Of a stretch of 64,000 nucleotides of DNA, positions 16,501 through 60,602 are shown piece by piece. How positions within the stretch are numbered: position 1 is the first letter of the stretch; each line of letters opens with the position of its first letter. The stretch covers positions 1,426,001-1,490,000 of the forward strand of contig NZ_JANLNM010000001.1 in assembly GCF_024701975.1 (NCBI RefSeq), given 5' to 3'. Both the position numbers and the translations under genes were made by a program. Under the pieces are notes generated by a model. That model had not been told where the DNA came from, ran no database searches, and saw only the letters and a program-made list of their open reading frames with translations. Source of the stretch: Variovorax sp. ZS18.2.2 (lineage in GTDB: Bacteria; Pseudomonadota; Gammaproteobacteria; Burkholderiales; Burkholderiaceae_C).

Positions 16501-18945
16501 GGCACGCTCGTTCTGACCGGCACCAACACCTACACCGGCGACACCGCGATCAAGGCAGGCACCCTGCAACTGGGCAACGGGGGCACGACCGGCTCCATCC
16601 AGGGCAATGTGGCCAATGGCGGCGTCCTGGCCTTCAACCGCTCCGATGCGATGACCCTGGCAGGAACGATCTCGGGCAGCGGCGCGGTCAACCAACTCGG
16701 TTCGGGCACGACGGTGCTGACTGGCACCAATACCTACACCGGCGGCACCGCGATCAATGCGGGCACTCTGCAATTGGGCAATGGCGGTGCGACCGGCTCC
16801 ATCCAGGGCGATGTGGCCAATGATGGCGTTCTGGCCTTCAACCGCTCCGGCGCGACGACCTTTGCAGGAACGATCTCGGGCAGTGGCGCAGTCAGCCAGC
16901 TCGGTTCGGGTACGACGGTGCTGACGGCGGCCAACACCTACACCGGCAACACCGCGATCAAAGCGGGCACCCTGCAGCTGGGCAACGGCGGCACGACCGG
17001 CTCCATCCAAGGCCATGTGGCCAATGACGGCGTTCTGGCCTTCAACCGCTCCGATGCAGTGACCTTTGCAGGAACGATCTCGGGCAGCGGTGCAGTCAGC
17101 CAGCTCGGTTCGGGTACGACCGTGCTGACGGCGGCCAACACCTACGCCGGTGGCACCGCGCTGAAGGCCGGTCAACTGAACGTCGGCCACAGTAACGCAC
17201 TGGGCACTGGTGCCCTGTCGATGGACGATGGCACCACGCTGGGCTTCACCGCCGACAGATTGAACCTCGCCAACAACGTGGTGCTCACCGGCACGCAGGA
17301 CCCCGTCATCGACACCGGCGCCTTCACCGAGACACTGGGCGGCGTCATCAGCGGCACGGGTTTGCTCACCAAGAACGGCAGCGGCGTCCTCATCACCACG
17401 GGTGCCAACACCTACAGCGGCGCCACCACGGTTGCGGCCGGCACGCTGCAGGCGGGGGCTGCCAACACCTTCAGCCCCGCCAGCGCCATGACGGTGAACA
17501 CGGGTGCGACGCTGAACCTCGCGGGCTACAGCCAGCGCGTTGCAGGCATGAACCTCGCAGGCACGGTCTCCGTGGCAGGCGCCGCGCCGGGCACCACGCT
17601 GACCGTGACAGGCCCCTGGACGGGCAATGGCGGCCTGCTCAAGCTTGGCACCGTGAGCCCCACGGTCTCGGACCGCGTCCTGCTGAGCGGCACCACCGCG
17701 GTCGCCAGCGGCACCACGACAGTGCAGATCGGCAACGTCGTGGGGCTGGGCGCAGCGACCACCGGCAACGGCATCGAACTGATCGGCACGACCGGCGGCG
17801 CGAGCGTCCAGGGCGACGCCTTCGTGCTCGCTGGTGGGCAACTTGTGGGAGGCGCCTACGAGTACCGTTTGAACAACATCAGCGGCGGCGGCTACCTGAG
17901 CTCATCCTCGCCGCAAGGGCAGGTCTTTTACCGCAGCGAGGTGCCTCTGTACGCCGCGCTGCCCGCCCAACTGCGCCAAGCCAGCCTGGCGATGCTGGGC
18001 AACATGCACCAGCGCACGGGTGACGATGACGTGAAGGCCGCGAGCGGCAGTCCGGCGGGTACCGACGGCACCGGCAGCAACAACCTCGGCAATGGCAGCC
18101 AGCGTCGCGCGTGGGGCCGGCTCATCTCGACCAACCTGGACATCCGTCAGAGCGGCACGGTCAGTCCCCAGAGCCACGGCCGGCTCGACGGCTTCCAGGC
18201 CGGCACCGATCTGCTGAGCCTCCAGAACTGGCGTGCGGGCGTCTATGTGGGCCAAGTCGATGGCGACATGGGCGTGAGTGGTTTCGCGCGTGGCATCCAG
18301 AGCCTGCGCGTGGGCCGCAACGATCTGCGCAACCAGTACCTGGGCGCCTACGGCACCTACAGCGCCGACAACGGCTTCTACGCCGATGCGGTGTTGCAGG
18401 CCGGGCGTCATCGCTACGACATCGTCAGCCCGATGGCGCAGGCCGGCAGCGGCAAGGGCCGCAGCCTGTTGGCGTCCGTCGAAGTGGGACAGTCGTTTGG
18501 GTTGGGCGGTGCGGGCACCGGGGGCGACTGGAAGATCGAACCGCAACTCCAGTTGATCCATCAGCGCCTGAGCCTGGACGACGCGGCCATCGCGGGGAAC
18601 ACGGTGGTGCGGCAGCGCCCCGACAGCGCATGGCTTGCGCGCCTGGGTGTGCGCGTCAAGGGCGAGGTCGGCGTCGGCGTTGCGCGCCTGCAGCCCTATG
18701 CGCGGTTCAACCTGTACCGCGCTTCTGGCGGCAACGACGTGACCAGCTTCATGGCGCCGGGTGGGCGCGCGGCGATCAGCTCTTCGACCGGCGGTACATC
18801 GGCCGAACTGGCCGCAGGTGCAACGCTGGCGCTGACGCCGAGCTTCGCGCTGTACGGCGAACTCGGCAAGCTCTGGAGCGCGGGCGGCGACACGCGCGTG
18901 AAGTCCTCGGTGCAGGGCAGCGTGGGGGCGCGCGTCCTCTGGTGA
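13516..18945 (+). CDS. Subtilisin-family autotransporter (type V secretion) with beta-strand repeats
   Basis: Surface or secreted serine protease of 1809 aa. A signal peptide ends near residue 37 (LFLSICSVAYGQ). The S8 peptidase domain has the catalytic Asp97 (MVDSG), His154 (NDSHGT), oxyanion Asn275 (SWANGN) and Ser375 (GTSAAAP). From about residue 620 to 1330 come PATR-type repeats (autotransporter-associated beta strand, TGxNTYxGxT pattern), expected to form a beta-helix stalk. The C-terminal barrel (about residues 1531-1809) ends in the aromatic Trp typical for BamA recognition. Bases 16516-17127 encode three nearly identical 68-residue units, with a fourth diverging copy after them. The gene is monocistronic. 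Subtilase autotransporters mature other surface proteins or act as toxins or adhesins; the target is unknown. Confidence 0.95.
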   Translation: MTIYQRPNSLSVDRSQARSKVFLAATLFLSICSVAYGQSTQGKYFNADGSRTNDLEAAAKTWRTPEFLQDHALGGVKAEYAYARGFTGTGVKIGMVDSGALANHPQLQGQFTPLTVTGIYGADGAQLDGSGKTWKKGDAFSVFGNYDPFINDSHGTAAAGEMVAKRNATGDAATDRMHGIAFDAHLYSANSGGTDSTVFGPDVDYAYFKEAYGVLARNGARVVNSSWGQESPTAGDYGTLQGITRLYGTFAGKKTFLDAAAEVSQEYGTIQSWANGNERRNNPRAVSSLPYFRPEIEKYWIAVTGVTKDDKTEYDRCGITKYWCMAGPTVDITTTTVGITGLTNYDRGGGGRRTPESVAKNPPQPDYTDTYNGTSAAAPNVTASLALVMQRFSYLEGDAARDVLFTTAKHLGDGPADVPNVTFGWGKPDLDKAMSGPGQFLGVFKASLPTGISDTWSNNISEAALIQRKTEERTEISAWLTTGKSALVAQLKPVPELQAPPPALVAQIPNAKTLLQAAINGNTTTTYTAKTFDAQIAALNADPAGKQLLAAYEATHPGWQNGYSVPSDYDNFIAGRSDQALAQDLANLARIAVLASNAAIQGQIEATETRVTYLQSKTDADYVGSLIKTGAGTLTLTGDNSYSGGTQLQAGTLGVGSSTALGTGTLAMSDATTLQAAADGLKLANAITLSGIGSIDTQAYGMTLSGAISDGATSGGLAKLGTGTLTLSGANTYSGSTSVMAGALRAGSTTGFSPRSAFVVAANGQLDLNNFNQTIGSLSGAGNVTLGTATLTTGGDNSSTAFSGLIAGAGGLTKTGSGMLSLTGGANALGGDVNVTGGALGIQTPATLDVGGAVSFADNTALSIDTTPTGPSLTARNLSLGKGVDFNLSGIDDKTQANRVLIDTRSGISGDFASVSIGGFHGEVDYLTVSTRKSDDNLKYLASYGLSWSAGNSLAHGTFTLIDATNNMVIGSNLGDKAANAATSWNGKTLTKAGAGTLVLTGTNTYTGDTAIKAGTLQLGNGGTTGSIQGNVANGGVLAFNRSDAMTLAGTISGSGAVNQLGSGTTVLTGTNTYTGGTAINAGTLQLGNGGATGSIQGDVANDGVLAFNRSGATTFAGTISGSGAVSQLGSGTTVLTAANTYTGNTAIKAGTLQLGNGGTTGSIQGHVANDGVLAFNRSDAVTFAGTISGSGAVSQLGSGTTVLTAANTYAGGTALKAGQLNVGHSNALGTGALSMDDGTTLGFTADRLNLANNVVLTGTQDPVIDTGAFTETLGGVISGTGLLTKNGSGVLITTGANTYSGATTVAAGTLQAGAANTFSPASAMTVNTGATLNLAGYSQRVAGMNLAGTVSVAGAAPGTTLTVTGPWTGNGGLLKLGTVSPTVSDRVLLSGTTAVASGTTTVQIGNVVGLGAATTGNGIELIGTTGGASVQGDAFVLAGGQLVGGAYEYRLNNISGGGYLSSSSPQGQVFYRSEVPLYAALPAQLRQASLAMLGNMHQRTGDDDVKAASGSPAGTDGTGSNNLGNGSQRRAWGRLISTNLDIRQSGTVSPQSHGRLDGFQAGTDLLSLQNWRAGVYVGQVDGDMGVSGFARGIQSLRVGRNDLRNQYLGAYGTYSADNGFYADAVLQAGRHRYDIVSPMAQAGSGKGRSLLASVEVGQSFGLGGAGTGGDWKIEPQLQLIHQRLSLDDAAIAGNTVVRQRPDSAWLARLGVRVKGEVGVGVARLQPYARFNLYRASGGNDVTSFMAPGGRAAISSSTGGTSAELAAGATLALTPSFALYGELGKLWSAGGDTRVKSSVQGSVGARVLW
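16516..17127 (+). repeat. Three in-frame 204-bp tandem repeats inside the autotransporter
   Basis: Units start at 16516, 16720 and 16924, each exactly 204 bp (68 codons), with a fourth related start at 17128 that soon diverges. Each encodes NTYTG, GTLQLGNGG, TGSIQG, VLAFNRS and ISGSGAV blocks. The near identity at DNA level implies recent duplication or ongoing homogenisation, and copy number could change by recombination without breaking the frame. Confidence 0.92.
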
Positions 18946-50298: not shown

Positions 50299-51483
50299 AT
50301 GCCTTCAACGCCCCCCACACCTGCTCCCGCCCCCGCGCCCAGCGCCACCGACCTGAATTCCCGCCACGCAGCCATCGCGCTCGGGCTTTCGCTGCCGGCC
50401 GACGTCGTTCTCTACCTCTTGCTGCCGATGTACGCCGACCAGTTCGGCGTGACGCTGGCCGAAGCCGGCATGCTGCTCGCGGCCAACCGGCTGGTGCGCA
50501 TCGCCGGGTACCGCTGGGTGGCGCGCTTCTATGCGCGCAACGGCGACCGGCCGACCTGCACCATCGCCGTCGTGGCCGCCGCCGTCTGCGGGGTGGGCTA
50601 CGCGACGCTCTCGGGCTTCTGGGCGCTCTTGCCGCTGCGGCTGATGTGGGGGCTGTGCTTCGCGGCGCTCAACCTGTCGACCCAGGCGCTGGCCACGGCC
50701 GACCCGGTCGGCGCCGCGCGCCGCAACGGCCGCTCGCGCGCGTTCATCGCCATGGGGCCGGTGCTGGCGCTGCCCCTGGGCGCGTTGATGGCGCACTGGG
50801 TCGGGCCGCGCGCGATCTTCGGCATCCTCGCGGTGTTCTCGCTGCTGGCGGTGTTCGCGGCCCGGCGGCTGCCCTCGGCGCCGCATCGCACGGAAAAACC
50901 CACGCGGCGCTTCCAGTGGCCCAACAGCCTCGATGGCTGGTCGTTCATGGAAGGGCTGGCGCTCGACGGGCTTTTCATCGTCGGCCTCTCGTACCTCGGC
51001 AAGGACCTGCTGCCGGGCGGCGCGGTGATCGTGGCCGGCCTGCTGATGGCGCTGCGCTACCTCGCGGAGATTTTCCTGAGCCCGGTCGGCGGGCACCTGG
51101 CGGACCGCTTCGGCGCGGAGCGGCTGCTGGTGAGCCTCTCGCTCGTGACGGCGATCGCGCTCGTGGGCTTCGGCCTCGGCTGGCTGTGGAGCTGCGCGGC
51201 GCTGATCGTTGTGCTGCGCGCCTTGCAGCTGCCCTTGCTGTCGCCCATCGTGGCGCGCCGCACGCCGGGGCCCGAGCGTGTGCAGGCGCTGGCCGCGCGC
51301 TCCGTGTGGCGCGACATCGGCGCCGGCGCCGGGCCGCTCATCGCGGGGCTGCTGCTGCCGGTCGCATCGCCGCCGTGGCTCTATGGCATTGCCGCCGTGC
51401 TGCTGGCCATCATGGCGCTGGCCTGCGGGCGAAATCCATCGCCACAATCGACACCATCTCACTCGCAGGAGCGAACGTCATGA
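50299..51483 (+). CDS. MFS transporter
   Basis: 394-aa membrane carrier with about 12 hydrophobic segments and a Pro/Ala-rich N-terminal tail. A central loop (FAARRLPSAPHRTEKPTRRFQW) and a GGHLADRFGAERLLV motif in the second half fit the major facilitator fold; the subfamily was not recognised. The ATG at 50299 follows an in-frame GTG/ATG-containing leader that is not family-like. Its stop overlaps the start of the FMN-type flavoprotein gene by 4 nt, so both are one operon under the divergent LysR. Confidence 0.85.
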   Translation: MPSTPPTPAPAPAPSATDLNSRHAAIALGLSLPADVVLYLLLPMYADQFGVTLAEAGMLLAANRLVRIAGYRWVARFYARNGDRPTCTIAVVAAAVCGVGYATLSGFWALLPLRLMWGLCFAALNLSTQALATADPVGAARRNGRSRAFIAMGPVLALPLGALMAHWVGPRAIFGILAVFSLLAVFAARRLPSAPHRTEKPTRRFQWPNSLDGWSFMEGLALDGLFIVGLSYLGKDLLPGGAVIVAGLLMALRYLAEIFLSPVGGHLADRFGAERLLVSLSLVTAIALVGFGLGWLWSCAALIVVLRALQLPLLSPIVARRTPGPERVQALAARSVWRDIGAGAGPLIAGLLLPVASPPWLYGIAAVLLAIMALACGRNPSPQSTPSHSQERTS

Positions 51484-52100
51484 CAAGGTCCCATGCCATC
51501 GAAACCGTCGAGCAGCTCGAAGCCCTGTTCGGCCAGCCGGGCGAGGCCTCGCTCAAGAAAGAAGTGCCGTACCTGCACCCGAGCTACCAGGCGCTGATTG
51601 CCGCTTCGCCCTTCGCGGTGCTCGCCACCCTCGGCCCCGGTGGCCTCGATGCATCGCCGCGCGGCGACCCGCCGGGCTTCGTGGTGGTGCAGGACGAGAA
51701 GACATTGCTCATGGCCGAGCGCCGCGGCAACAACCGCATCGACAGCCTGCGCAACATCGTGGCCGATCCGCGCGTGGCCTTGCTCTTCCTGATTCCCGGT
51801 GTCGGCGAAACGCTGCGCGTGAACGGACGCGCGCGTATCACTGTCGCGCCGGATGTCATGGCGCGCTTCGCAATGGAAGGCAAGCTGCCGCAGTGCGTGA
51901 TCGAGGTGCAGGTGGAAACGGTGTACTTCCAGTGCGCTCGCGCGATCCAGCGCTCGAAGCTCTGGGCGCCCGTGGCGGCGGATGCAAAGCGCGAAGTGCC
52001 GACGGCCGGGGCCATTCTTTCGGCGCTGACCGATGCGGCATTCGATGGGGTGACCTACGACCGTGAGTTGCCGGCAAGGCAGCAGTCGACCTTGTACTGA
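51480..52100 (+). CDS. PPOX-type FMN-dependent flavoprotein (MSMEG_1061-like)
   Basis: 206-aa member of the pyridoxamine-5'-phosphate-oxidase-like split-barrel superfamily. It contains PFAVLATLGPGGLDASPRGDP, then MAERRGNNRIDSLRNIVADPRVALLFLIPGVGETLRVNG, typical for FMN/F420-split-barrel proteins of the MSMEG_1061 group. These often reduce or sequester small redox molecules; the reaction here is unknown. Start and upstream MFS stop overlap (ATGA). The GNAT gene follows 6 bp later. Confidence 0.88.
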   Translation: MTRSHAIETVEQLEALFGQPGEASLKKEVPYLHPSYQALIAASPFAVLATLGPGGLDASPRGDPPGFVVVQDEKTLLMAERRGNNRIDSLRNIVADPRVALLFLIPGVGETLRVNGRARITVAPDVMARFAMEGKLPQCVIEVQVETVYFQCARAIQRSKLWAPVAADAKREVPTAGAILSALTDAAFDGVTYDRELPARQQSTLY

Positions 52101-52106
52101 AAGATC

Positions 52107-52571
52107 ATGGACAACCACATCGCTTTTCGCACCGCGGCGCTGGCCGATCTTCCCGCCATCGTCGAGCTGCTGGCGAACGACGAACTGGGGCGCCGCCGCG
52201 AAGTGACGGGGCCGACGCTGGATGCGCGGTACCTCGCGGCATTCAACGCCATCGAGGCCGATGCGAATCAGCAACTCGCAGTCGCGGTGGACGAGGCGGG
52301 CGCCGTGGTCGGCACCTTGCAGCTGTCGTTCATACCGGGCATCGCGCGGACGGGCGCGTGGCGTGGGCAGATCGAGGCGGTCCGCATTGCGGAGACGTTG
52401 CGCGGTTCGGGCGTGGGTCAGCAGATGTTCGAGTGGGCCATTGCGCAGTGCAGGGCGCGCGGCTGCACGCTGGTGCAACTGACCACGGACAAGGGCCGTC
52501 CGGACGCGCATCGCTTCTACGAAAAGCTCGGCTTCGTTGCGAGCCACGAGGGCTACAAGCTCGGGCTTTGA
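52107..52571 (+). CDS. GNAT-family N-acetyltransferase
   Basis: 154-aa acetyltransferase with RTAALADLPAIVELLANDELG at the N-terminus, a VRIAETLRGSGVGQQMFEWA acetyl-CoA loop and DAHRFYEKLGFVASHEG at the C-terminus. It lies 6 bp after the PPOX-type gene in the same operon. A terminator-like hairpin follows at 52671-52694. Substrate unknown; the family includes antibiotic, polyamine and protein acetylases. Confidence 0.9.
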   Translation: MDNHIAFRTAALADLPAIVELLANDELGRRREVTGPTLDARYLAAFNAIEADANQQLAVAVDEAGAVVGTLQLSFIPGIARTGAWRGQIEAVRIAETLRGSGVGQQMFEWAIAQCRARGCTLVQLTTDKGRPDAHRFYEKLGFVASHEGYKLGL

Positions 52572-52670
52572 CACCTGTTTTCGGGGCTGAACAGGCCACT
52601 GTGTTTCGATGTTCAGCAAGATGTCACTCAAAGCAACCGCCAGTGGTTCGAGGGCCATCCAGGGGGAGTC

Positions 52671-52694
52671 GGCAGTGTAGACTGCCAGGTTTTT
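52671..52694 (+). terminator. Intrinsic terminator candidate before the DUF3348 gene
   Basis: GGCAGT-GTAG-ACTGCC forms a 6-bp GC-rich stem with a 4-base loop, followed after AGG by TTTTT. It would end the MFS/PPOX/GNAT transcript and isolate the DUF3348 cluster. The stem is short, so efficiency is uncertain. Confidence 0.55.
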
Positions 52695-52707
52695 CCAAGT
52701 GGCGGTA

Positions 52708-53391
52708 ATGGTGCAAGTGTCAAGGCGCACAGGCTTCACCGGCTCGGCGCTGATTCGCTTGCTCGCTCGCCTGACCGACATCGAAGTCCCCGAGCCCAAA
52801 CAGGCTTTTGCGGATCGATTGAGTCAATGGCTCGGCTGGACCGATGCCATCTCCCTTTCTGCAGCGTTGAACGGCGGCCTGACTGCTGCGTCTTCTGGCG
52901 CGCGCGTGGCTGGCAACCCCGAAGCACGCGAATGCGAGCGTGTGCGGACCGCGATGGCCAACGCCATCGCGGAAGACATGCACAGCGTTTCCCGGGACAA
53001 CACGACCGACTTCGCTGCCTACCGCAGGCGCTACCACGCCAGGCAGCAGGCCATGGAGACGAGCATCGCGCCCTTGCGCGGCCGCCTGCGTTCGACGCTG
53101 GCGACGCGCTCGCCCGACATGGCGCGGCTGGCGGCGGTGGACGTGGTCATGGAGCAGGTGTTGAGCGCGCAGGAGCATCGGCTGCTGGCGAGCATCCCGG
53201 CGACGCTCGAGAAGCATTTCAAGCGCTTGGGCCGGGCCGATGCCAACGCCAGTGCCGACGCCGACAGCGAGGCCGAACCCGGCGTGTGGCTGGCCGTGTT
53301 CCGCAAGGACATGCACGACGTGCTGCTCGCCGAGATGGACGTCCGATTTCAACCGGTCGAAGGGCTGCTCGAAGCCCTTCGCGCGAGCTAA
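52708..53391 (+). CDS. DUF3348 family protein
   Basis: 227-aa cytoplasmic-looking, helix-rich protein. The N-terminus RRTGFTGSALIRLLARLTDIE and FADRLSQWLGWTDAISLSAAL is the DUF3348 pattern; a conserved WLAVFRKDMHDVLLAEMDVRFQP block closes it. Function is unknown. It is the first gene of a four-gene cluster (DUF3348, DUF802, OmpA-like, DUF2894), with the DUF802 ATG 10 bp after its stop. The ATG at 52708 was chosen; GTG at 52699 is also in frame. By position it may be a cytoplasmic adaptor for the membrane complex made by the next two proteins. Confidence 0.88.
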   Translation: MVQVSRRTGFTGSALIRLLARLTDIEVPEPKQAFADRLSQWLGWTDAISLSAALNGGLTAASSGARVAGNPEARECERVRTAMANAIAEDMHSVSRDNTTDFAAYRRRYHARQQAMETSIAPLRGRLRSTLATRSPDMARLAAVDVVMEQVLSAQEHRLLASIPATLEKHFKRLGRADANASADADSEAEPGVWLAVFRKDMHDVLLAEMDVRFQPVEGLLEALRAS

Positions 53392-53401
53392 CCAGAGTTT
53401 C

Positions 53402-55492
53402 ATGACCCAACTTCTTCATCGCATCGTCTTCGTCGTCGGCCTGGCCGCAGTCTGCTGGGTCGGCATCGGGTACATCGGCTCGAACCCGCTGGCGCTGGCG
53501 ATCACCGTGCTCATCGGCGCGTTCTATGTGGTGGGTGCGCTGGAGCTGCACCGCTTCGGGCAGGCCACGACCACGCTGACCCATGCAGTCACGGACATGA
53601 CCGCGCCGCCCGCCAGCCTGGGCGAATGGCTCGACAAGCTGCATCCGTCGCTGCGCAATGCGGTGCGCCTGCGTATCGAAGGCGAGCGCGTCGGCTTGCC
53701 CGGCCCGAGCCTCACGCCGTACCTCGCGGGCTTGCTGGTGCTGCTGGGCATGCTGGGCACCTTCCTCGGCATGGTGGTCACGCTGAACGGCACGGGCACG
53801 GCGCTGGAGAGCGCGTCGGACCTGCAGGCCATGCGCGCCTCGCTGGCCGCGCCGGTCAAGGGGCTGGGCGTGGCCTTCGGCACCTCGCTCGCGGGCGTGG
53901 CGACATCGGCGACGCTGGGCCTTCTGTCGGCCCTGAGCCGGCGCGACAGGATGCAGGCCGGGCAACTGCTCGACGCGCGGATCGCCACCACCTTGCGCGT
54001 CTTCTCGCAGGCCCATCAGCGCGAAGAGTCCTTCAAGCTGCTGCAGCGCCAGGGCGAGGCGATGCCCGTGCTGGTCGACCGCCTGCAACTGATGATGGCG
54101 ACGATGGAGCGTCAGAGCCAGGCCTTGAACGAACGCCTGATCTCCAGCCAGGACAGCTTCCACGGCAAGGCCGAGGCCGTGTACGCGGGCCTGGCTTCAT
54201 CCGTCGGCCAGTCGCTGAAAGAGGGCCTGGCCGACAGCGCCCGCATCGCCGGCGCGACGATCCAGCCGGTGGTCGAAGCCACCATGGCCGGCATCGCACG
54301 CGAGACGGCCGCGCTGCACGCCACGGTCGAGCAGGGCGTGCAGCGGCAACTCGACGGCCTCTCCACCCGCTTCGAGACCAACACCACCACCGTGGCGGAC
54401 ATCTGGAAGACCGCACTCGCCGGGCAACAACGCACGAGCGAGGCGCAAGCCAAGGACCTGCGCACCGCGCTCGACCAGTTCACCCAGACCTTCGAGCAGC
54501 GCTCGGCTTCGCTGGTGGACGGCGTTTCCGCCCGCCTCGAAACCACGGTCGAGCGCGTGTCCGACAACTGGCGCAGCGCGCTCGCGCAGCACGAACGTGC
54601 GAGCGAAACCCTCTCGGGCGACACGCACCGCGCACTGACCGCCGCCGCAGCCACTTTCGAACAACACTCGGCTTCGCTGCTGAACACGGTGGGTCAGGCG
54701 CACACCGACCTGCAGGCCGAGATGGCATCGCGCGACCAGCAGCGGCTGGCCGCATGGACCCAGTCGCTCGAAGCGATGGCCGTGTCGCTCCAGCAGGAAT
54801 GGCAGCAGGCCGGCGCGCGCAGCGAGACCCAGCAGCAGGAAATCTGCAAGACGCTCGCGCAGACCGCCAGCGACATCTCCGCCCAAAGCGAAGCGCACGC
54901 GAAGAGCACCATCGCCGAAATCGGCCAGCTCATGCAGGCCGCCTCCGAGGCGCCGCGCGCCGCGGCCGAAGTGATCGCCGAGCTGCGCCAGAAACTCTCG
55001 GACAGCATGGCGCGCGACAACGCGATGCTCGACGAGCGCAGCCGCATCCTCGGCACGCTGGAGACGCTGCTCGACGCGGTGAACCACGCCTCCACTGAAC
55101 AGCGCAGCGCCATCGATGCGCTCGTGGCCACCTCGGCGGACCTGCTGGACCGCGTGGGCTCGCGCTTCACCGACAAGGTCGACACCGAAACCGGAAAGAT
55201 GGCCGACGTCGCCGCGCAGATCACCGGCAGCGCCGTCGAGGTCGCGAGCCTGGGCGAGGCCTTCGGCTTCGCGGTGAAGCTCTTTGCCGAATCGAACGAC
55301 AAGATGAGCGCGCACCTGCAGCGCATCGAAGCTGCGCTCGGCAAGTCCATCGCGCGCAGCGACGAGCAACTGGCGTACTACGTGGCGCAGGCCCGCGAGG
55401 TCATCGACCTGAGCATCATGTCGCAGAAGCAGATCGTCGAAGACCTGCAGCAACTCGCGGTTCAGCGAGCCACCGCGGGCAGCGAAGCGTGA
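53402..55492 (+). CDS. DUF802 membrane protein with MotA/TolQ/ZorA-like core and long coiled-coil tail
   Basis: 696-aa inner-membrane protein. Four hydrophobic segments are seen, at about residues 7-25, 28-48, 100-125 and 154-180. The third contains LGMLGTFLGMVVTL (GTFLG at 119-123), which matches the pore-helix motif of MotA, TolQ, ExbB and ZorA. The fourth, GVAFGTSLAGVATSATLG, fits their small-residue-rich last helix. Residues about 200-696 form a long Glu/Gln/Ala-rich coiled-coil tail with two or three related 75-85-residue DUF802 units (TRFETNTTTVADIW and SARLETTVERVSDNW). A large cytoplasmic tail is a known feature of ZorA. The downstream OmpA-like gene overlaps its stop. The stator-motor role is inferred. 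Confidence 0.85.
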   Translation: MTQLLHRIVFVVGLAAVCWVGIGYIGSNPLALAITVLIGAFYVVGALELHRFGQATTTLTHAVTDMTAPPASLGEWLDKLHPSLRNAVRLRIEGERVGLPGPSLTPYLAGLLVLLGMLGTFLGMVVTLNGTGTALESASDLQAMRASLAAPVKGLGVAFGTSLAGVATSATLGLLSALSRRDRMQAGQLLDARIATTLRVFSQAHQREESFKLLQRQGEAMPVLVDRLQLMMATMERQSQALNERLISSQDSFHGKAEAVYAGLASSVGQSLKEGLADSARIAGATIQPVVEATMAGIARETAALHATVEQGVQRQLDGLSTRFETNTTTVADIWKTALAGQQRTSEAQAKDLRTALDQFTQTFEQRSASLVDGVSARLETTVERVSDNWRSALAQHERASETLSGDTHRALTAAAATFEQHSASLLNTVGQAHTDLQAEMASRDQQRLAAWTQSLEAMAVSLQQEWQQAGARSETQQQEICKTLAQTASDISAQSEAHAKSTIAEIGQLMQAASEAPRAAAEVIAELRQKLSDSMARDNAMLDERSRILGTLETLLDAVNHASTEQRSAIDALVATSADLLDRVGSRFTDKVDTETGKMADVAAQITGSAVEVASLGEAFGFAVKLFAESNDKMSAHLQRIEAALGKSIARSDEQLAYYVAQAREVIDLSIMSQKQIVEDLQQLAVQRATAGSEA

Positions 55493-56139
55493 TGACCGAG
55501 GACCTCGACGCCGGCACCGAGGCATCGGTCCCGGTATGGGCCGTCTTCGGCGACCTGATGTCCGGCCTGCTGGGCGCCTTCGTGCTGATCCTGGTGTGCG
55601 TGATCGGCATGCAGCTCGAGCTCGCGACCAAGCTCGAAGCCGAGGTCAAGCAGCGCAGGGTCGAGGCCGAGCGGCTGCAGACGCTCGAGCAGGCGCTGGC
55701 CGGGCCGCTCGCGGCGGGCCGCGTGACGCTGAACAACGGGCGCATCGGCATCAGCGGCAGCGTGCTGTTCGCGTTGAACTCCGCCGAACTGCAGCCCGAG
55801 GGCCGGCAACTGCTCAAGAGCCTGGCTGCGCCGCTCACGGCCTACCTCCAGGCCCGCGACGAGATCCTGATGGTGAGCGGCTTCACCGACGACCGGCAGG
55901 TGCGCGGCGGCAACCGCCAGTTCGCGGACAACTGGGAACTCTCGGCCCAGCGCGCGCTGACGGTGACCCGCACGCTGATCGAGGAGGGCATTCCGTCGTC
56001 CGCGATCTTTGCCGCGGCGTTCGGCGCCGAGCAGGCGGTGGCGTCGAATGCCGATGCCGACGGACGCTCCAGGAACCGTCGCGTGGAGATGGCGCCCACG
56101 CCGAAGCGTTCGGACGCGAAGACAAAGCCTCGTGAGTAG
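55492..56139 (+). CDS. OmpA/MotB-domain protein, ZorB-like partner
   Basis: 215-aa protein with a single N-terminal transmembrane helix (about residues 16-41) that begins VWAVFGDLMSGLLGAFVLIL. Its Asp21 takes the place of the ion-carrying Asp in MotB (YADFVTA pattern) and ZorB. A short coiled coil follows (ELATKLEAEVKQRRVEAERL), then an OmpA-type peptidoglycan-binding domain with the NRRVEM signature at the end. The ATG overlaps the DUF802 stop (TGATG), so the two proteins are translationally coupled, as expected for stator partners. The Asp position is a strong sign of an ion-driven complex. Confidence 0.87.
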   Translation: MTEDLDAGTEASVPVWAVFGDLMSGLLGAFVLILVCVIGMQLELATKLEAEVKQRRVEAERLQTLEQALAGPLAAGRVTLNNGRIGISGSVLFALNSAELQPEGRQLLKSLAAPLTAYLQARDEILMVSGFTDDRQVRGGNRQFADNWELSAQRALTVTRTLIEEGIPSSAIFAAAFGAEQAVASNADADGRSRNRRVEMAPTPKRSDAKTKPRE

Positions 56140-56734
56140 TGAGGACGCCATCGGAATGGAGGCAACGCTCGGCGCATGGCGCGAGCGCGGGGCGCATCGC
56201 CTCGATCCGGTGCGCTTTCATTTCATCGAGACATTGGCCAAGCGCGCGGCCGACCACGGCGGGGAGGCGCGGCGCATCCTGGACGAGAAGGTCACCGCGC
56301 TGCTTGCAGCCTACGGCGAGGATCTTGAAAAGATTCCGGATGCGGAAGTCGTCGCAGGCGAGCGATCTGCGCGCGGGCCGCTGGCGGAACTGACCGACCA
56401 CCTCGTGCGTCACGCATCGTCCGAACGGATGGACCCGGCGACCAACGAATTGAAGGTGCTCCCGTTTTTCCGGAGCACATGGTCGAAGCTCAGCGCCGAA
56501 CGGCGGCTGACGCAATCGCTGGCGAAGCTGCCGCAGAACGCCGGCCCGCTCAATTCGCACAACCTCGTGCATCAATCCCTCACGCTGATGCGCGAGCTTT
56601 CGCCGGAATACCTCAATCGGTTCGTCTCGTATGTCGATGCGTTGCTGTGGGTCGATCAGGCGAATGCGCCGGCCGGCAACGATGCGCCGCGCGCCGAGGG
56701 TGGCAAGAAGGCTGCGCGCGGCAAATCCGGCTGA
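56132..56734 (+). CDS. DUF2894 family protein
   Basis: 200-aa soluble protein with GAWRERGAHRLDPVRFHFIETLAKRA-type N-terminus, PFFRSTWSKLSAERRLTQSL mid-region and a Lys/Arg-rich tail (GGKKAARGKSG). DUF2894 proteins have no known function but recur beside DUF802/OmpA genes. The GTG at 56132 overlaps the previous stop by 8 nt; ATG 56156 is an alternative. Its last 150 or so bases occur again, decayed, at about 58390-58546, so its 3' end took part in a segmental duplication. Confidence 0.85.
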   Translation: MSSEDAIGMEATLGAWRERGAHRLDPVRFHFIETLAKRAADHGGEARRILDEKVTALLAAYGEDLEKIPDAEVVAGERSARGPLAELTDHLVRHASSERMDPATNELKVLPFFRSTWSKLSAERRLTQSLAKLPQNAGPLNSHNLVHQSLTLMRELSPEYLNRFVSYVDALLWVDQANAPAGNDAPRAEGGKKAARGKSG

Positions 56735-56756
56735 GCCGCGGACGGCAGGGGGCGGG

Positions 56757-57164
56757 TCAGCCCCGGTGCCTCTGGCGCCATCGCGACCCCAACAGATACA
56801 CCGTGGCCGCAAGGAGCAGCGCTGCGGCAGCGACTTCCGACAGGATCGTGATGTTCGCGACGGGGCTGTGCAATTCCATGGGGGCCAAGGTGTAGTGCGC
56901 GAGCCCGTCGAAGCCCAGCACGGCATAGACGGCGACAAGGAGCAGGCCCGTCATGACGAACTGCTTGCGGATGAGCAGGAACCCGAGCACCCCCACCGAC
57001 GTGATGCCGACCCAGGCCGCATAGACCTTCGCGCTGGTGAGCGAGGCGGGAAGGTTCGGGTACTCGCAGATGAACTCGGCGTTGTGACTGAAGTGCCCGA
57101 GGCTGGTCAGGAAGTACATCGCTGCCAACGCGAAAAATAGGCGGGCTTGAGGTTGTGCAGTCAT
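56757..57164 (-). CDS. Small four-helix membrane protein, unrecognised
   Basis: 135-aa integral membrane protein. Four hydrophobic stretches are seen, around residues 8-24 (FFALAAMYFLTSLGHF), 45-60, 65-85 and 102-122. I do not recognise the family. It converges with the DUF2894 gene with a 22-bp gap. A frameshifted, N-terminally truncated copy lies at 58564-58926 after an AT-rich insertion. The ATG at 57164 was chosen because the longer frame begins in low-complexity AT-rich sequence. Confidence 0.7.
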   Translation of the reverse strand: MTAQPQARLFFALAAMYFLTSLGHFSHNAEFICEYPNLPASLTSAKVYAAWVGITSVGVLGFLLIRKQFVMTGLLLVAVYAVLGFDGLAHYTLAPMELHSPVANITILSEVAAAALLLAATVYLLGSRWRQRHRG

Positions 57165-57371
57165 CGGGACAGAAAAGATGCAATGGCAACAGCAAAAGCT
57201 TTTTTTATTTTCAAGGTCAGGTAGATAAAAATACGTCGACACAATTGAAATATTGATTCGAAAAAATCAATCACTCCGATTGCATCGATGAAATAATTAA
57301 ACCTGAAGTTTATTTTTTAAATATTTAATTCGGACAACCTTAAGCGATCCGCTTGGATCCAGAAACCTGCG
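57165..57371. other. AT-rich spacer at the left edge of the inserted segment
   Basis: 207 bp with many A/T runs, very unlike the flanking GC-rich DNA. It contains the dyad ATTGATT-CGAAAA-AATCAAT (57252-57271), which could be a hairpin terminator for the secreted-protein gene that ends at 57372, although no clear U-tract follows. No gene seen. Confidence 0.6.
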
Positions 57372-58109
57372 TCAGGGGCACGGAGACCAAGGAGTAACAA
57401 TACGATCAGGAGCACTGGGGGCCGAATTTACGTAGTTAGGCGGAAGAAGTGTTTTGGCTTCGGAAATAAACCCCATGCCACAAGAGTTGTTTGGCCGCGG
57501 ATTTCCAGCAGCGTCTGAAAGACCGTTTGCGCTCAGTTTAATTAATGCTTGCTGACCCACTGCAAGTGGGGTTTGCAAGCTGCAATTAATGTTGAACGCC
57601 ACACTTGCTGGGTAATCCGGTGATGCCGTAAAGTTTGCAATATTATTGGTATTCATTGGCGTCACAACTTTAGTGAGGGTTTGATTTTCATAAAACCCAG
57701 TGCAACTGAGTGCTGGATCAATCGAATTAATGACAAACGTTGCGCTAGTCAGGAGTGGGGATGGAGCGCCACCTACGTGCCCCGAATGATAGCCAACGGC
57801 AATTTGAAATTGCAACTGCGTTCCGACGGGCAACGGTTGAGCGTTCGATACAGTGGCGCCCGAATTTGTCAATGTCGCCAAAAAAACGGTAGGAGTGGGT
57901 GACCCCCAAAAACTAAACCCTGGTGCATACGGTGTAGCGTTCACTGAAGCGTTGTAAGTCTCTGGAATGCATGTGGTGACCGCCATTGCCGAGGTGGTCG
58001 AGGCAAGCAATGCGGTATGTAGCATGAGTACCAAAGAAATTTGAGCCGCCGTTCGCCTTGTTCTTTTTTTTGGAGCGCCCTGGGTGTGCGTAAAATTTTT
58101 GACAGACAC
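57372..58109 (-). CDS. Secreted protein of unknown function, AT-rich gene
   Basis: 245-aa exported protein. A GTG at 58109 was chosen because CAAGGGAG lies 7 bases before it; a GTG at 58145 is also in frame but lacks a site. The leader VSVKNFTHTQGAPKKRTRRT precedes a hydrophobic core (ISLVLMLHTALLASTT) and a likely cut at AMA. The mature part is Thr/Ser/Asn/Pro-rich with about 5 Cys (TTCIPE, SCTGF, NINCSL, NSCGMG, SPCP), suggesting disulfides. No family was recognised. Its codon use and composition differ sharply from neighbours and it lies inside a duplication gap, so it was probably acquired horizontally. Confidence 0.75.
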   Translation of the reverse strand: MSVKNFTHTQGAPKKRTRRTAAQISLVLMLHTALLASTTSAMAVTTCIPETYNASVNATPYAPGFSFWGSPTPTVFLATLTNSGATVSNAQPLPVGTQLQFQIAVGYHSGHVGGAPSPLLTSATFVINSIDPALSCTGFYENQTLTKVVTPMNTNNIANFTASPDYPASVAFNINCSLQTPLAVGQQALIKLSANGLSDAAGNPRPNNSCGMGFISEAKTLLPPNYVNSAPSAPDRIVTPWSPCP

Positions 58110-58390
58110 AATAAAACTCCCTTGTTGAAAAATTGCAGTAGCCACTCTGGATCATTTGAAATGATCAATAATTCACTGAGTCATTTTTATGAGTCACAAG
58201 AGTGAATTTCAAGTCTACATTGGATTTTCTTTGAGTGTCAATGTGTAGATTGATTTGAGAATCTTGAAAACTTCACATGAACGTTGAGTATGGGAAGCAG
58301 AGCTAGTGTGCGGGATTTTTCGTGAAACACTCGTGTGTAATTAATTTCCGAAATGTTTCTCTAATACACGAAATCTTTGCGATCGATATG
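58110..58390. promoter_or_regulatory. AT-rich promoter region of the secreted-protein gene
   Basis: About 280 bp with several symmetric sequences. GATCATTT-G-AAATGATC (58150-58166) is a perfect 8-bp dyad. Two TGAGTCA direct repeats follow within 20 bp (from about 58177). A longer near-dyad TCTACATTG...CAATGTGTAGA follows at about 58215-58250. These could be operators for tight regulation. The promoter should direct transcription leftward. No gene was seen. Confidence 0.5.
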
Positions 58391-58546
58391 CCATTTACGC
58401 TGATGCGCAATCTGTCGTTGGAATACTCACTTTGTTCACGCCGTACGTCGACGCGTTGCTGTGGGTCGATCAGGCGAATGCGCCTGCGCGCAACGATGCG
58501 CCGCGCGCCGAGGGCGGCAAGAAGGTTGCGCGCAGCAAATCCGGCT
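58390..58546 (+). pseudogene. Decayed duplicate of the DUF2894 gene 3' end
   Basis: Bases here repeat the end of the gene at 56575-56734. TLMRNLSLEY is followed, after a frameshift near 58430, by YVDALLWVDQANAPARNDAP and the GGKKVARSKSG tail, ending in TGA. About 78 % or more of the last 100 bases look identical by eye. Only the C-terminal fifty or so codons are present, so it is not functional. Confidence 0.82.
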
Positions 58547-58563
58547 GAGCCGCGGGGAGAGGT

Positions 58564-58926
58564 TCAGCGAAGCGATGCCCGGCGCCGCTCGCACAACCGC
58601 AACACCAGCAGGCTAACCGTGGCTGCAAGCAGCAGCTCCGCGGCAACGACTTCCGAGAGGATCGTGATGCTCGCTGCGTGTGCGTGCCAGGCCATCGGCG
58701 CCAGCGCGGAGTGGCCGAGTCCGTCGAAGCCGAGCAGGGCATCGGCGGCGATAGGCAGAAGGCCCATCCTCACGAACCGCTTGCGAATGAACAGGAGCCC
58801 GAGCACCCTTACCGACGTGCTGCCAGCCCAGGCCGCATAGACCTTCGCGCTGGTGAGCGACGCCGGAAGATTCGGCGACTCGCAGATGAACTCGGCGTAG
58901 TGCGCTGAAATGCCCGAGGCTGGTCA
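58564..58926 (-). pseudogene. Truncated, frameshifted duplicate of the small membrane-protein gene
   Basis: This copies 56757-57106. The in-frame part reads VLGLLFIRKRFVRMG, then LLGFDGLGHSALAPM and ITILSEVVAAELLLAATV, matching the intact protein. Upstream, YAEFICESPNLPASLTSAKV is still in frame, but a one-base change near 58905 shifts the first helix region, and homology ends at about 58926 before the start codon. An 80-codon frame from GTG 58806 remains open, so a truncated product is possible but unlikely to matter. Confidence 0.82.
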
Positions 58927-58930
58927 GGTT

Positions 58931-59287
58931 CTACTTGTTTCGCGTGACCGGCACGTTCACATGCCATTTCTGCAGGGTGGTGCCCACGGCCCGTGTGCAG
59001 GTGACCATGACGTTGCGCCCCGTCAACCCGTAGCTCTTGGGCGTCCATTTCGTTTCGAGCGGAACACTGCACCTGGGGACCAGAACTTTCATGTTCGGAT
59101 CGAGCGCCACCCACCCGCTGTGCGTGATGGCGTTCTCCTTCGCGACAAAGCTGCGTGCCTCTTACCGTATCTCGAACAGACCGTGTTTTTCGGCCGTGGA
59201 GCGATCAGTTTCGATGCGCCACGAAGCCAAGCAACTTGCCGAGGCAAGGAGCAGAAGGGGAAGCAGGAGTGTGCGGCTTCTGGTCAT
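58931..59287 (-). pseudogene. Small secreted-protein gene interrupted by an in-frame stop
   Basis: The ATG at 59287 starts MTRSRTLLLPLLLLASASCL, a lipoprotein-like or Sec signal peptide with Cys near position 19, then WRIETDRSTAEKHGLFEIR and a TAA at 59162-59164. The same frame continues for 76 sense codons: EARSFVAKENAITHSGWVAL, then VLVPRCSVPLETKW, SYGLTGRNVMVTC and LQKWHVNVPVTRNK, ending in TAG at 58931-58933. Both halves look like real coding sequence, so the TAA is a point mutation, a sequencing error or, less likely, readthrough. The full product would be 118 aa. Family not recognised. Confidence 0.75.
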
Positions 59288-59306
59288 GGCATTCGGGATG
59301 CTGCGC

Positions 59307-60602
59307 TCAGGTTCGACCCGTCGCCGCCTGTTCCGCCCGCGCATCGTGCCCGATGACCAGCACCAGCACGAACGCCACCGCCGACAGCAGCGCGAGAAAG
59401 ATCACCGCGTAGATGTCGTTGCCCATGCGGTCCTTCAGCGCGCCGAAGATCGTCGGGCCGATGTAGCCGCCGAGGTTGCCGATGGAGTTGATCCACGCGA
59501 TGCCGGCCGCGGCCGCGGTGCCGCTCAGGATCGCGGTGGGCAGCGTCCAGAACATCGGCAGCGCGCTGAAGATGCCGAACGCGGCGAGCGTCACGGCCGC
59601 CATCTTGGGGATGGGCGCGCTGGTTTCTGCGGCCGCAACGAGGCCCACGAAGATGCACGCGAGCGGGATCAACAGGAACCACTTGCGCTCCTTCTTCGCA
59701 TCGGAGGCGCGGGTCCAGAACACCATCGCGATGGCACCGATCAGGTACGGAAAGGCGTTGATGAAGCCGATCTCCACGTTGCCCAGGCCGCCGAAGCCCT
59801 TGATGATCTGCGGCAGGAAAAAGCTCAGGCCATACAGCGGCACGGTGATGCCCATGTAGACGAACCCCAGGCCGATCACGCGCGGATTCAGCAGCGCCTG
59901 CCTCCACGAAATGGTGTGCAGCGCTTCGCGGCTGCGGCGCTCGCCGTCGAGCGTGTGCTGCAGCCAGTCGCGCTCTTCATTCGAGAGCCACTTCGCATCC
60001 TTCGGGCCGTCGGGCAGGTAGAACAGGATGAAGAAGGTCAGGATCAGCGAGGGAATCGCCTCGAGGATGAAGAGCCACTGCCAGCCGTGCATGCCGCCAA
60101 AGCCGTCCATGTTGAGGATGAAGCCCGAGATCGGTGAGCCGATCACCGTGGAGATCGGGATCGCGAACATGAACCAGCCCACGATGCGCGCGCGGTAGGC
60201 GGCCGGAAACCAGAGCGTGATGTAGAAGATGACGCCCGGAAAGAAACCGGCTTCGGCAATGCCGAGCAGGAAGCGCACGACGTTGAAGCTGGTCGAGCCG
60301 CCCACCCAGGCCTGGGCCGCGGAAAGAATGCCCCAGCTGAACATGATGCGGGCGATCCAGCGGCGCGCGCCGAAGCGCTCCAGCGCCATGTTGCTCGGCA
60401 CCTCGAAGAGGAAATACGCGAGGAAGAAAATGCCGGCCGCGTTGCCGAACACGGTGGAGGTGAAGTCCAGGTCCTTGGACATTGCGGAGCCGGCAAAGCC
60501 GAGGTTCACGCGATCGAGGTAGGCGATGAAGTAGCTGATCATCAACAGCGGCAAGAGCCGCCAGCTCATCTTCGAGATGGTTCTTTGTTCGACGGGGTTC
60601 AC
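59307..60602 (-). CDS. MFS transporter, ACS family (phthalate/tartrate/galactonate type)
   Basis: 431-aa proton symporter-like carrier. The N-terminus RLLPLLMISYFIAYLDRVNLGFA and the motif EVPSNMALERFGARRWIARI are hallmarks of the anion:cation symporter family, which imports organic acids such as phthalate, tartrate or hexuronates. A GxxxD-rich central loop (DGPKDAKWLSNEERDWL) separates the two halves. It lies downstream of the M48 protease gene on the same strand (68-bp gap) without metabolic neighbours, so the substrate is unclear. Confidence 0.93.
   Translation of the reverse strand: MNPVEQRTISKMSWRLLPLLMISYFIAYLDRVNLGFAGSAMSKDLDFTSTVFGNAAGIFFLAYFLFEVPSNMALERFGARRWIARIMFSWGILSAAQAWVGGSTSFNVVRFLLGIAEAGFFPGVIFYITLWFPAAYRARIVGWFMFAIPISTVIGSPISGFILNMDGFGGMHGWQWLFILEAIPSLILTFFILFYLPDGPKDAKWLSNEERDWLQHTLDGERRSREALHTISWRQALLNPRVIGLGFVYMGITVPLYGLSFFLPQIIKGFGGLGNVEIGFINAFPYLIGAIAMVFWTRASDAKKERKWFLLIPLACIFVGLVAAAETSAPIPKMAAVTLAAFGIFSALPMFWTLPTAILSGTAAAAGIAWINSIGNLGGYIGPTIFGALKDRMGNDIYAVIFLALLSAVAFVLVLVIGHDARAEQAATGRT

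What the first reader, a model, noticed from the sequence alone, without database searches (positions are those of the whole stretch)
52708..56734. Four-gene DUF3348/DUF802/OmpA/DUF2894 cluster looks like a ZorAB- or MotAB-type ion-driven complex
Seen in sequence: the DUF802 protein has four membrane segments, a GTFLG pore-type motif in the third and a very long coiled-coil tail. The OmpA-like protein has one membrane helix with an Asp (residue 21) in the MotB-like position FGDLMSGLLGAF, then a peptidoglycan-binding domain. The genes overlap or are spaced by 10 bp or less, and a terminator-like hairpin separates them from the upstream operon. Known: MotAB, TolQR, ExbBD and ZorAB are 5:2 proton- or ion-driven units; ZorA has a long cytoplasmic tail. 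Inference: this is a motor-type complex with two soluble partners (DUF3348, DUF2894) that could act in phage defence, cell-envelope work or surface motility. I know of no assigned function.
Basis: partly seen in the sequence, partly recalled or inferred. Interest (0 to 1): 0.78.

Follow-up and report, generated by a model that had tools for sequence, protein, structure and literature searches.

The report
Zorya type III anti-phage motor operon
The four genes are a known kind of bacterial anti-virus machine, a cell-wall-anchored ion-driven motor called Zorya type III, and the surprise is that its genus carries one copy in nearly every species, often at a different place in the genome.

Summary
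In detail: four adjacent genes at 52708-56734 encode DUF3348, a four-helix MotA-like protein with a long coiled tail, an OmpA/MotB-like protein with invariant Asp21, and DUF2894. All four match PADLOC's Zorya type III models, a subtype defined in 2021 and shown there to protect E. coli from phages (PMC8565338). The genome is a Variovorax. The ZorAB guess is right; 'no assigned function' is wrong. My additions: (1) DUF3348 is found, never as two whole copies, in 97 of 100 Variovorax, 41 of 43 Achromobacter and 60 of 61 genomes of a Burkholderiaceae genus, against 47 of 100 Variovorax for a type I restriction domain; (2) in Variovorax the operon sits in many different neighbourhoods, its site here is empty in three relatives that carry it elsewhere, and a zorF remnant lies 1.8 kb downstream; (3) ZorA length varies from 601 to 1228 aa, with in-frame tandem duplications in many tails; (4) both partner proteins are predicted all-helical, so the effector of type III stays open. 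Verdict: an already known system; its near-fixed single copy and missing nuclease are the interesting parts.

The parts
52708..53391 (+). zorG3 (DUF3348; called ZorF in Payne 2021 text, ZorG in PADLOC-DB); no TM segment, predicted all-helical
   Evidence: PF11828 E 2e-80; PADLOC ZorG3 E 1.6e-89; AF2 model 7 helices, pLDDT 80.1, pTM 0.76
53402..55492 (+). zorA3: four TM helices (pore) plus about 460-residue coiled-coil-like tail with DUF802 repeats
   Evidence: PADLOC ZorA3 E 0; PF05650 two stretches, best at 320-372; TM segments and T120/T161/S162; 8vvn match
55492..56139 (+). zorB3: one TM helix with D21, then OmpA/MotB-type (peptidoglycan-binding) domain
   Evidence: PADLOC ZorB3 E 1.2e-114; PF00691 E 3.1e-19; D21 39/39 and T132, D133, R154, N195-R197 39/39
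56132..56734 (+). zorF3 (DUF2894; called ZorG in Payne 2021 text, ZorF in PADLOC-DB); no TM segment, predicted all-helical
   Evidence: PF11445 E 1.2e-56; PADLOC ZorF3 E 4.4e-75; AF2 model 8 helices, pLDDT 75.8, pTM 0.42
52104..59302 (.). approximate extent of the stretch (GNAT gene + zorGABF + downstream genes) that is absent at the same place in three other Variovorax genomes
   Evidence: empty site in L219, L220, L222 between the PPOX gene (51480-52100) and the MFS gene (59307-60602)
52107..52571 (+). GNAT acetyltransferase gene next to the operon in this clade; no evidence that it is part of the system
   Evidence: PF00583 E 1e-17; also before zorG in L087 and L090, absent from the empty sites
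58397..58555 (+). remnant of a second, diverged zorF 3' end (copy of 56582-56741), followed by a broken copy of the 161-aa gene up to 58928
   Evidence: direct repeats D1, D2, D6; remnant 86% to the G045 allele, intact copy 93.5% to the G076 allele
52671..52696 (+). hairpin plus T run between GNAT and zorG; number of such sites not above chance

Best explanation
This is a Zorya type III anti-phage system, zorG-zorA-zorB-zorF, in a Variovorax genome. Five ZorA and two ZorB most likely form an inner-membrane ion-driven motor. ZorB Asp21 facing the ZorA Thr/Ser ring carries the ions, and the ZorB OmpA-type domain grips peptidoglycan when a phage pierces or strains the wall. The pull opens the channel, ZorA turns, and the bundled ZorA tail carries the signal into the cytoplasm. 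There the two helical partners (DUF3348, DUF2894) act as tail-bound adaptors. They either recruit a host-encoded effector or gate the motor, because neither looks like a nuclease. Shown: family membership, conserved residues, gene set, occurrence, position changes, tail variation. Taken from types I and II: 5:2 assembly, peptidoglycan sensing, ion flow, tail relay. Inferred: the adaptor role of the two partners. In Variovorax, Achromobacter and one other Burkholderiaceae genus it behaves as a near-fixed, one-per-genome immune module rather than a patchy accessory one.
For: All four proteins match type III PADLOC models. Pore residues and Asp21 are invariant. The ZorA profile matches solved type I ZorA 8vvn, with GTF and TS aligned. 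The same four-gene set from Stenotrophomonas nitritireducens protected E. coli from phages (PMC8565338, passages read). In types I and II the ZorB Asp, the peptidoglycan domain and the ZorA tail are all needed (PMC11890865, abstract, passages and section 6 part 1). All four genes in order in 77 of 80 named loci and in 20 of 20 loci fetched from each of three genera. Defence-like evolution in Variovorax: neighbourhood turnover, empty sites, remnant of a second zorF lineage, ZorG and ZorF diverging faster than ZorA and ZorB.
Against: No nuclease or other effector domain was found in ZorG or ZorF, unlike types I and II, so the mechanism cannot be copied whole. Near-universal single-copy presence (97/100, 41/43, 60/61), stable positions in Achromobacter and absence of convincing defence genes among 141 flanking proteins are unusual for a defence system. 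In B. cenocepacia only the first one or two Zorya III genes changed in expression on infection, and the authors did not list it among transcriptionally active systems (PMC12584637, passages). Nothing here tests phage protection by the Variovorax copy.
Confidence: 0.72

Rival explanations
1. A core envelope-maintenance or wall-damage-sensing motor of these genera. Phage protection seen in E. coli would be a side effect of a general response to wall puncture.
For: DUF3348 once in 84 of 86 good Variovorax, 40 of 40 good Achromobacter and 60 of 60 good genomes of genus g132, against 47 of 100 for HSDR_N in the same 100 Variovorax. Positions are fairly stable in Achromobacter and g132 (131 and 116 of 190 pairs share a neighbour). 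Flanks look like ordinary genes. No nuclease seen. 0 of 50,697 phage records; 27 of 72,556 plasmid records, all on replicons of 366 kb or more, though 7 of the 27 are predicted mobilizable.
Against: Two good Variovorax genomes (G047, G080) lack it, and two more carry a broken zorG (G017 in two frames, G064 with a stop). Most genera sampled lack it: found in 46 of 141 in the family, 15 of 135 in the order, 6 of 272 in the class. A housekeeping gene would not be expected to change neighbourhood so often in Variovorax (10 and 8 of 190 genome pairs share the upstream and downstream neighbour; control 190 and 94). Direct protection was shown for a homologue (PMC8565338).
Confidence: 0.2
2. The motor is itself the effector: on infection ZorAB opens and leaks ions, arresting or killing the cell, and ZorG and ZorF are regulators of the leak.
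For: Payne et al. propose that the two partners regulate ZorAB (PMC8565338, passages). Both partners are predicted all-helical with no catalytic fold found.
Against: In types I and II the effect is traced to DNA damage by nucleases recruited by ZorAB (ZorE shown, ZorCD cited; PMC11890865, passages). A leak would not obviously need a ZorA tail of 360 to 990 residues.
Confidence: 0.3
3. A flagellar or gliding stator (MotAB-like), TolQR or ExbBD unit.
For: Shared MotA/TolQ/ExbB pore architecture and OmpA/MotB domain.
Against: Best and full-length matches are ZorA3 and ZorB3. The named Mot models shown in NCBIfam match mainly the OmpA part and fall far below their cut-offs; the one model passed is an unnamed 'hypothetical protein' family, NF006547 (best 25 of 40 shown). 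Of five neighbouring genes scanned, three are GNAT, PPOX and MFS and two have no Pfam family.
Confidence: 0.03

Closest known systems
Zorya type III (Payne et al. 2021; PADLOC ZorA3, ZorB3, ZorF3, ZorG3)
   Same: Same four genes, matches over nearly the whole length of all four models
   Different: Nothing defining differs; this copy is from Variovorax, and its anti-phage activity is untested
Zorya type I (ZorABCD) and type II (ZorABE)
   Same: ZorA pore motif, ZorB Asp, OmpA-type domain, long ZorA tail
   Different: No ZorC, ZorD or ZorE in the operon; two all-helical partners instead; ZorA length varies 601-1228 aa, whereas Mariano et al. state that component size is well conserved within types I and II
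MotAB flagellar stator, ExbBD, TolQR
   Same: Ion-driven MotA/TolQ/ExbB pore fold and, for MotB, OmpA-type wall-binding domain
   Different: Long cytoplasmic tail, fixed partners DUF3348 and DUF2894, profile scores far better for Zorya

Membership tests
Zorya type III | ZorA with MotA/TolQ/ExbB-type pore | tested here: met
   PADLOC ZorA3 E 0; 8vvn match E 5.9e-6; four hydrophobic segments
Zorya type III | ZorB with TM Asp and OmpA/MotB domain | tested here: met
   PADLOC ZorB3 1.2e-114; D21 39 of 39
Zorya type III | flanking DUF3348 gene | tested here: met
   PF11828 2e-80; PADLOC ZorG3 1.6e-89
Zorya type III | flanking DUF2894 gene | tested here: met
   PF11445 1.2e-56; PADLOC ZorF3 4.4e-75
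Zorya type III | protection against phages | not testable with these tools
   Shown for the S. nitritireducens operon in E. coli (PMC8565338); not for this copy
Zorya (all types) | 5:2 ZorA:ZorB complex with bundled cytoplasmic tail | not tested
   No multimer prediction was run; the tail shows 11/22/33/55-residue (also 7 and 18) periodicity, in line with a coiled coil
Zorya type I or II | ZorC and ZorD, or ZorE, in the operon | tested here: not met
   The two partner proteins match only type III partner models; adjoining genes are GNAT and a 161-aa protein of no Pfam family. ZorC, ZorD and ZorE were not sought elsewhere in the genome
MotAB stator | MotA/MotB equivalog profile match above cut-off | tested here: not met
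   Mot models shown for ZorB score 93 bits or less against cut-offs of 250-301 (best 25 of 40 families shown); no MotA model among the two families matched by ZorA

The most novel reading that the evidence does not exclude
Type III Zorya is not an accessory defence-island system but a genus-fixed, strictly single-copy wall-sensing motor. Incoming alleles replace the resident one and two copies do not persist, perhaps because mixed ZorA/ZorB motors interfere. It works without a nuclease of its own, through two helical adaptors on a tail whose length is tuned by in-frame tandem duplication.
Probability: 0.3. Interest if true: 0.65.

Novelty: already known. Interest (0 to 1): 0.4.

Why it matters
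The cluster has a name and a homologue with tested activity, so the identification is not new. What matters is that an annotated defence system is present once in nearly every species of at least three Burkholderiales genera, with no convincing defence neighbours in the 24 loci scanned, and has no visible effector. That makes it a good place to ask whether bacteria have fixed, innate-type immunity, whether such motors also serve the envelope, and how ZorAB signals without ZorD or ZorE. The tandem-repeat tails give a natural length series for testing the tail-relay model.

Tried and rejected
MotAB/ExbBD/TolQR membership was considered and rejected on profile scores. The genes came from a simple ORF caller of mine, so some may be wrong. 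Pfam on the same set: only the 25 commonest of 149 families were shown, mostly transport, regulatory and metabolic, so rarer mobile-element families could be hidden. Viral spread: 31 pattern matches in IMG/VR, none confirmed, and 0 phage records.

The first rpoB comparison was wrong because minus-strand loci were not turned; corrected. PxpA (PF03746) was picked as a synteny control; it is multi-copy, so I chose one copy per genome from the hit list by score, and its upstream sharing (190 of 190) probably reflects an operon, so the downstream figure (94 of 190) is the fairer comparison. The type I ZorA model NF033914 rang in 21 of 100 Variovorax but in none above its cut-off; most of these hits lie beside DUF3348, so they are the type III ZorA itself.

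Hu et al. 2025 (Nature) on the type I mechanism is not held; I saw only its citation in PMC11890865.

Full report
WHAT IS THERE. Four plus-strand genes occupy 52708-56734: DUF3348 (227 aa), a 696-aa protein with four hydrophobic segments and a long coiled tail, a 215-aa OmpA/MotB-like protein with one hydrophobic segment, and DUF2894 (200 aa). Spacings are +10, -1 and -8 bases. All four match PADLOC Zorya type III models over nearly their whole length: ZorG3 1.6e-89, ZorA3 E 0, ZorB3 1.2e-114, ZorF3 4.4e-75. A profile of 17 ZorA N-termini finds the solved type I ZorA 8vvn (E 5.9e-6), aligning GTFLG with GTFMG and the FGTS of TM4 with FLTS.

WHAT IS KNOWN. Payne et al. 2021 (PMC8565338, passages read) defined Zorya type III from 6,401 clusters and showed that the Stenotrophomonas nitritireducens operon reduces plaquing in E. 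[quoted passage not shown] Mariano et al. 2025 (PMC11890865; outline with abstract, passages and section 6 part 1; [quoted passage not shown] A Variovorax sp. with PADLOC-called type III is on record (PMC11953036, passages). In B. cenocepacia only the first one or two genes of Zorya I and III changed in expression during infection, and the authors did not list type III as transcriptionally active (PMC12584637, passages). Name note: Payne's text calls DUF3348 ZorF and DUF2894 ZorG; PADLOC-DB models use the reverse.

RESIDUES. ZorB W16, D21, G28, T132, D133, R154 and N195-R197 are identical in 39 of 39 aligned sequences (38 chosen from the loci plus the window). ZorA T120, T161 and S162 are identical in 17 of 17. 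That these form the ion path and wall-binding site rests on types I and II and on MotB; it was not tested here.

OCCURRENCE. DUF3348 (PF11828) is found in 97 of 100 Variovorax genomes, the window's own included (84 of 86 good ones). None has two whole copies: the three genomes with two matches (G017, G028, G058) show pieces that together make one gene, and G064 has a stop inside. In Achromobacter it is in 41 of 43 (40 of 40 good); I name g92 as Achromobacter from contig lengths shared. In an unnamed genus of another family of the order (g132, probably Burkholderiaceae in the usual sense, 5.5-9.4 Mb) it is in 60 of 61 (60 of 60 good; one match is partial). As a yardstick, the type I restriction domain HSDR_N is in 47 of the same 100 Variovorax, and a type I ZorA model passes its cut-off in 0 of 100. 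Wider samples are mostly empty: 87 of 299 in the family (46 of 141 genera), 18 of 300 in the order (15 of 135 genera), 8 of 369 in the class (6 of 272 genera). It is found on 27 of 72,556 plasmid records, all 366 kb or longer, 7 of them predicted mobilizable, in 0 phage records, and in no confirmed IMG/VR contig. So it is present or absent largely by genus. The full four-gene set was checked in 20 of 20 Variovorax loci picked from the 97 genomes, in 20 of 20 Achromobacter and 20 of 20 g132 loci, and in 77 of 80 named loci, the other three being cut by contig ends. I did not check all four genes in every genome counted by DUF3348.

POSITION. In Variovorax only 10 of 190 genome pairs share an upstream neighbour and 8 of 190 a downstream one, against 190 and 94 of 190 for one copy of pxpA in the same 20 genomes. 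The 40 named Variovorax loci fall into 22 neighbourhoods by my threshold, some split only because contigs end, and one (L157) joined to the Achromobacter group. Achromobacter differs: 17 of 17 named loci are linked in one neighbourhood, and 131 of 190 pairs share a neighbour; g132 gives 116 of 190. At this window's site, the pyridoxamine-oxidase-like gene (51480-52100) and the MFS gene (59307-60602) stand about 400 bp apart in G061, G089 and G014, with no zor genes between; in G066 and G025 the upstream side is kept, zor is absent there too, and the downstream side is arranged differently. All five carry zorGABF elsewhere. Nine genome pairs with a shared zor neighbourhood (marked by hand) have mean ZorG distance 0.155 at mean rpoB distance 0.034; 28 pairs with different neighbourhoods and rpoB distance under 0.045 have 0.355 at 0.038 (pairs are not independent). 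Over all 20 genomes zor and rpoB distances still correlate (Mantel r 0.63-0.65), so inheritance is partly vertical. I read this as frequent allele replacement and relocation on a vertical background. Relocation with faster change is not excluded.

REMNANT. 58397-58928 repeats 56582-57111 (the zorF end plus part of the next gene) at about 80%. The remnant is closer to the allele of G045 (86%) than to that of G076 (79%); the intact copy is closer to G076 (93.5%) than to G045 (87%). So two zorF lineages seem to have met at this site.

TAIL. ZorA length in 78 named loci runs from 601 to 1228 aa (two loci cut by contig ends left out), 777-1109 in 20 g132 loci and 1075-1228 in 20 Achromobacter loci. 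In tails of ZorA proteins of 690 aa or more, similarity peaks at lags 11, 22, 33 and 55, also 7 and 18, in line with a coiled coil, and at 131. Tandem Repeats Finder reports an array in 37 of 78 zorA genes; 34 have units of 62 aa or more, commonly 131 aa (13 genes) or 87 aa (8 genes). The other 41 have none at that threshold. Mariano et al. state that component size is well conserved within types I and II, so type III differs. The window's own zorA has no tandem array by that program, only a 33-nt repeat spaced 55 codons apart.

PARTNERS. AlphaFold2 models are all helix: ZorG pLDDT 80.1, pTM 0.76; ZorF 75.8, pTM 0.42. Searches by sequence and fold gave no relative. A missing match proves nothing about fold, but no mixed alpha/beta nuclease core is visible. 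Invariant positions are few: 14 in ZorG (five of them polar or charged: Q113, R124, D145, E209, R213) and 9 in ZorF (W, G, P, N, L, M, S, P, Y). I take them for binding proteins rather than enzymes; that is inference, and the polar set in ZorG leaves a catalytic role open.

MECHANISM. By analogy with types I and II, wall damage is sensed by ZorB, ions pass Asp21, ZorA turns and its tail carries the signal. The step after that is unknown for type III. I favour helical adaptors that recruit a host effector or gate the motor. The leak model and the core-envelope model remain.

PRINT STATUS. I found no statement in print of the near-universal single-copy occurrence, the changing neighbourhoods or the tandem-repeat tails of type III; the searches were and 94 of an open-licence library, of which I read passages of four papers, so papers outside it or parts unread could hold them.

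VERDICT. A correct and useful observation of a system already named. Interest rests on its near-fixed occurrence and missing effector.

Noticed in passing
window 57372-58145 (-): 257-aa protein with no Pfam match above cut-off, in a stretch (57243-58396) that matched no other locus fetched except the window's own genome.
   Followed up: partly
window 56757-57242 (-): 161-aa hydrophobic protein of no Pfam family directly after zorF; present after zorF in the G045 and G076 loci, with a broken second copy in the window at about 58578-58928.
   Followed up: partly
window 13516-18945 (+): 1809-aa subtilase-type autotransporter (Peptidase_S8, PATR repeats, autotransporter beta-domain).
   Followed up: no
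   Followed up: no
PADLOC-DB models versus Payne 2021 text: ZorF and ZorG names are swapped between the paper's text (DUF3348 = ZorF) and the PADLOC models (DUF3348 = ZorG); a trap for annotation.
   Followed up: yes
unnamed Variovorax genomes G047 and G080: Two nearly complete genomes without DUF3348; natural losses, if not assembly gaps, that could serve as comparison strains.
   Followed up: no
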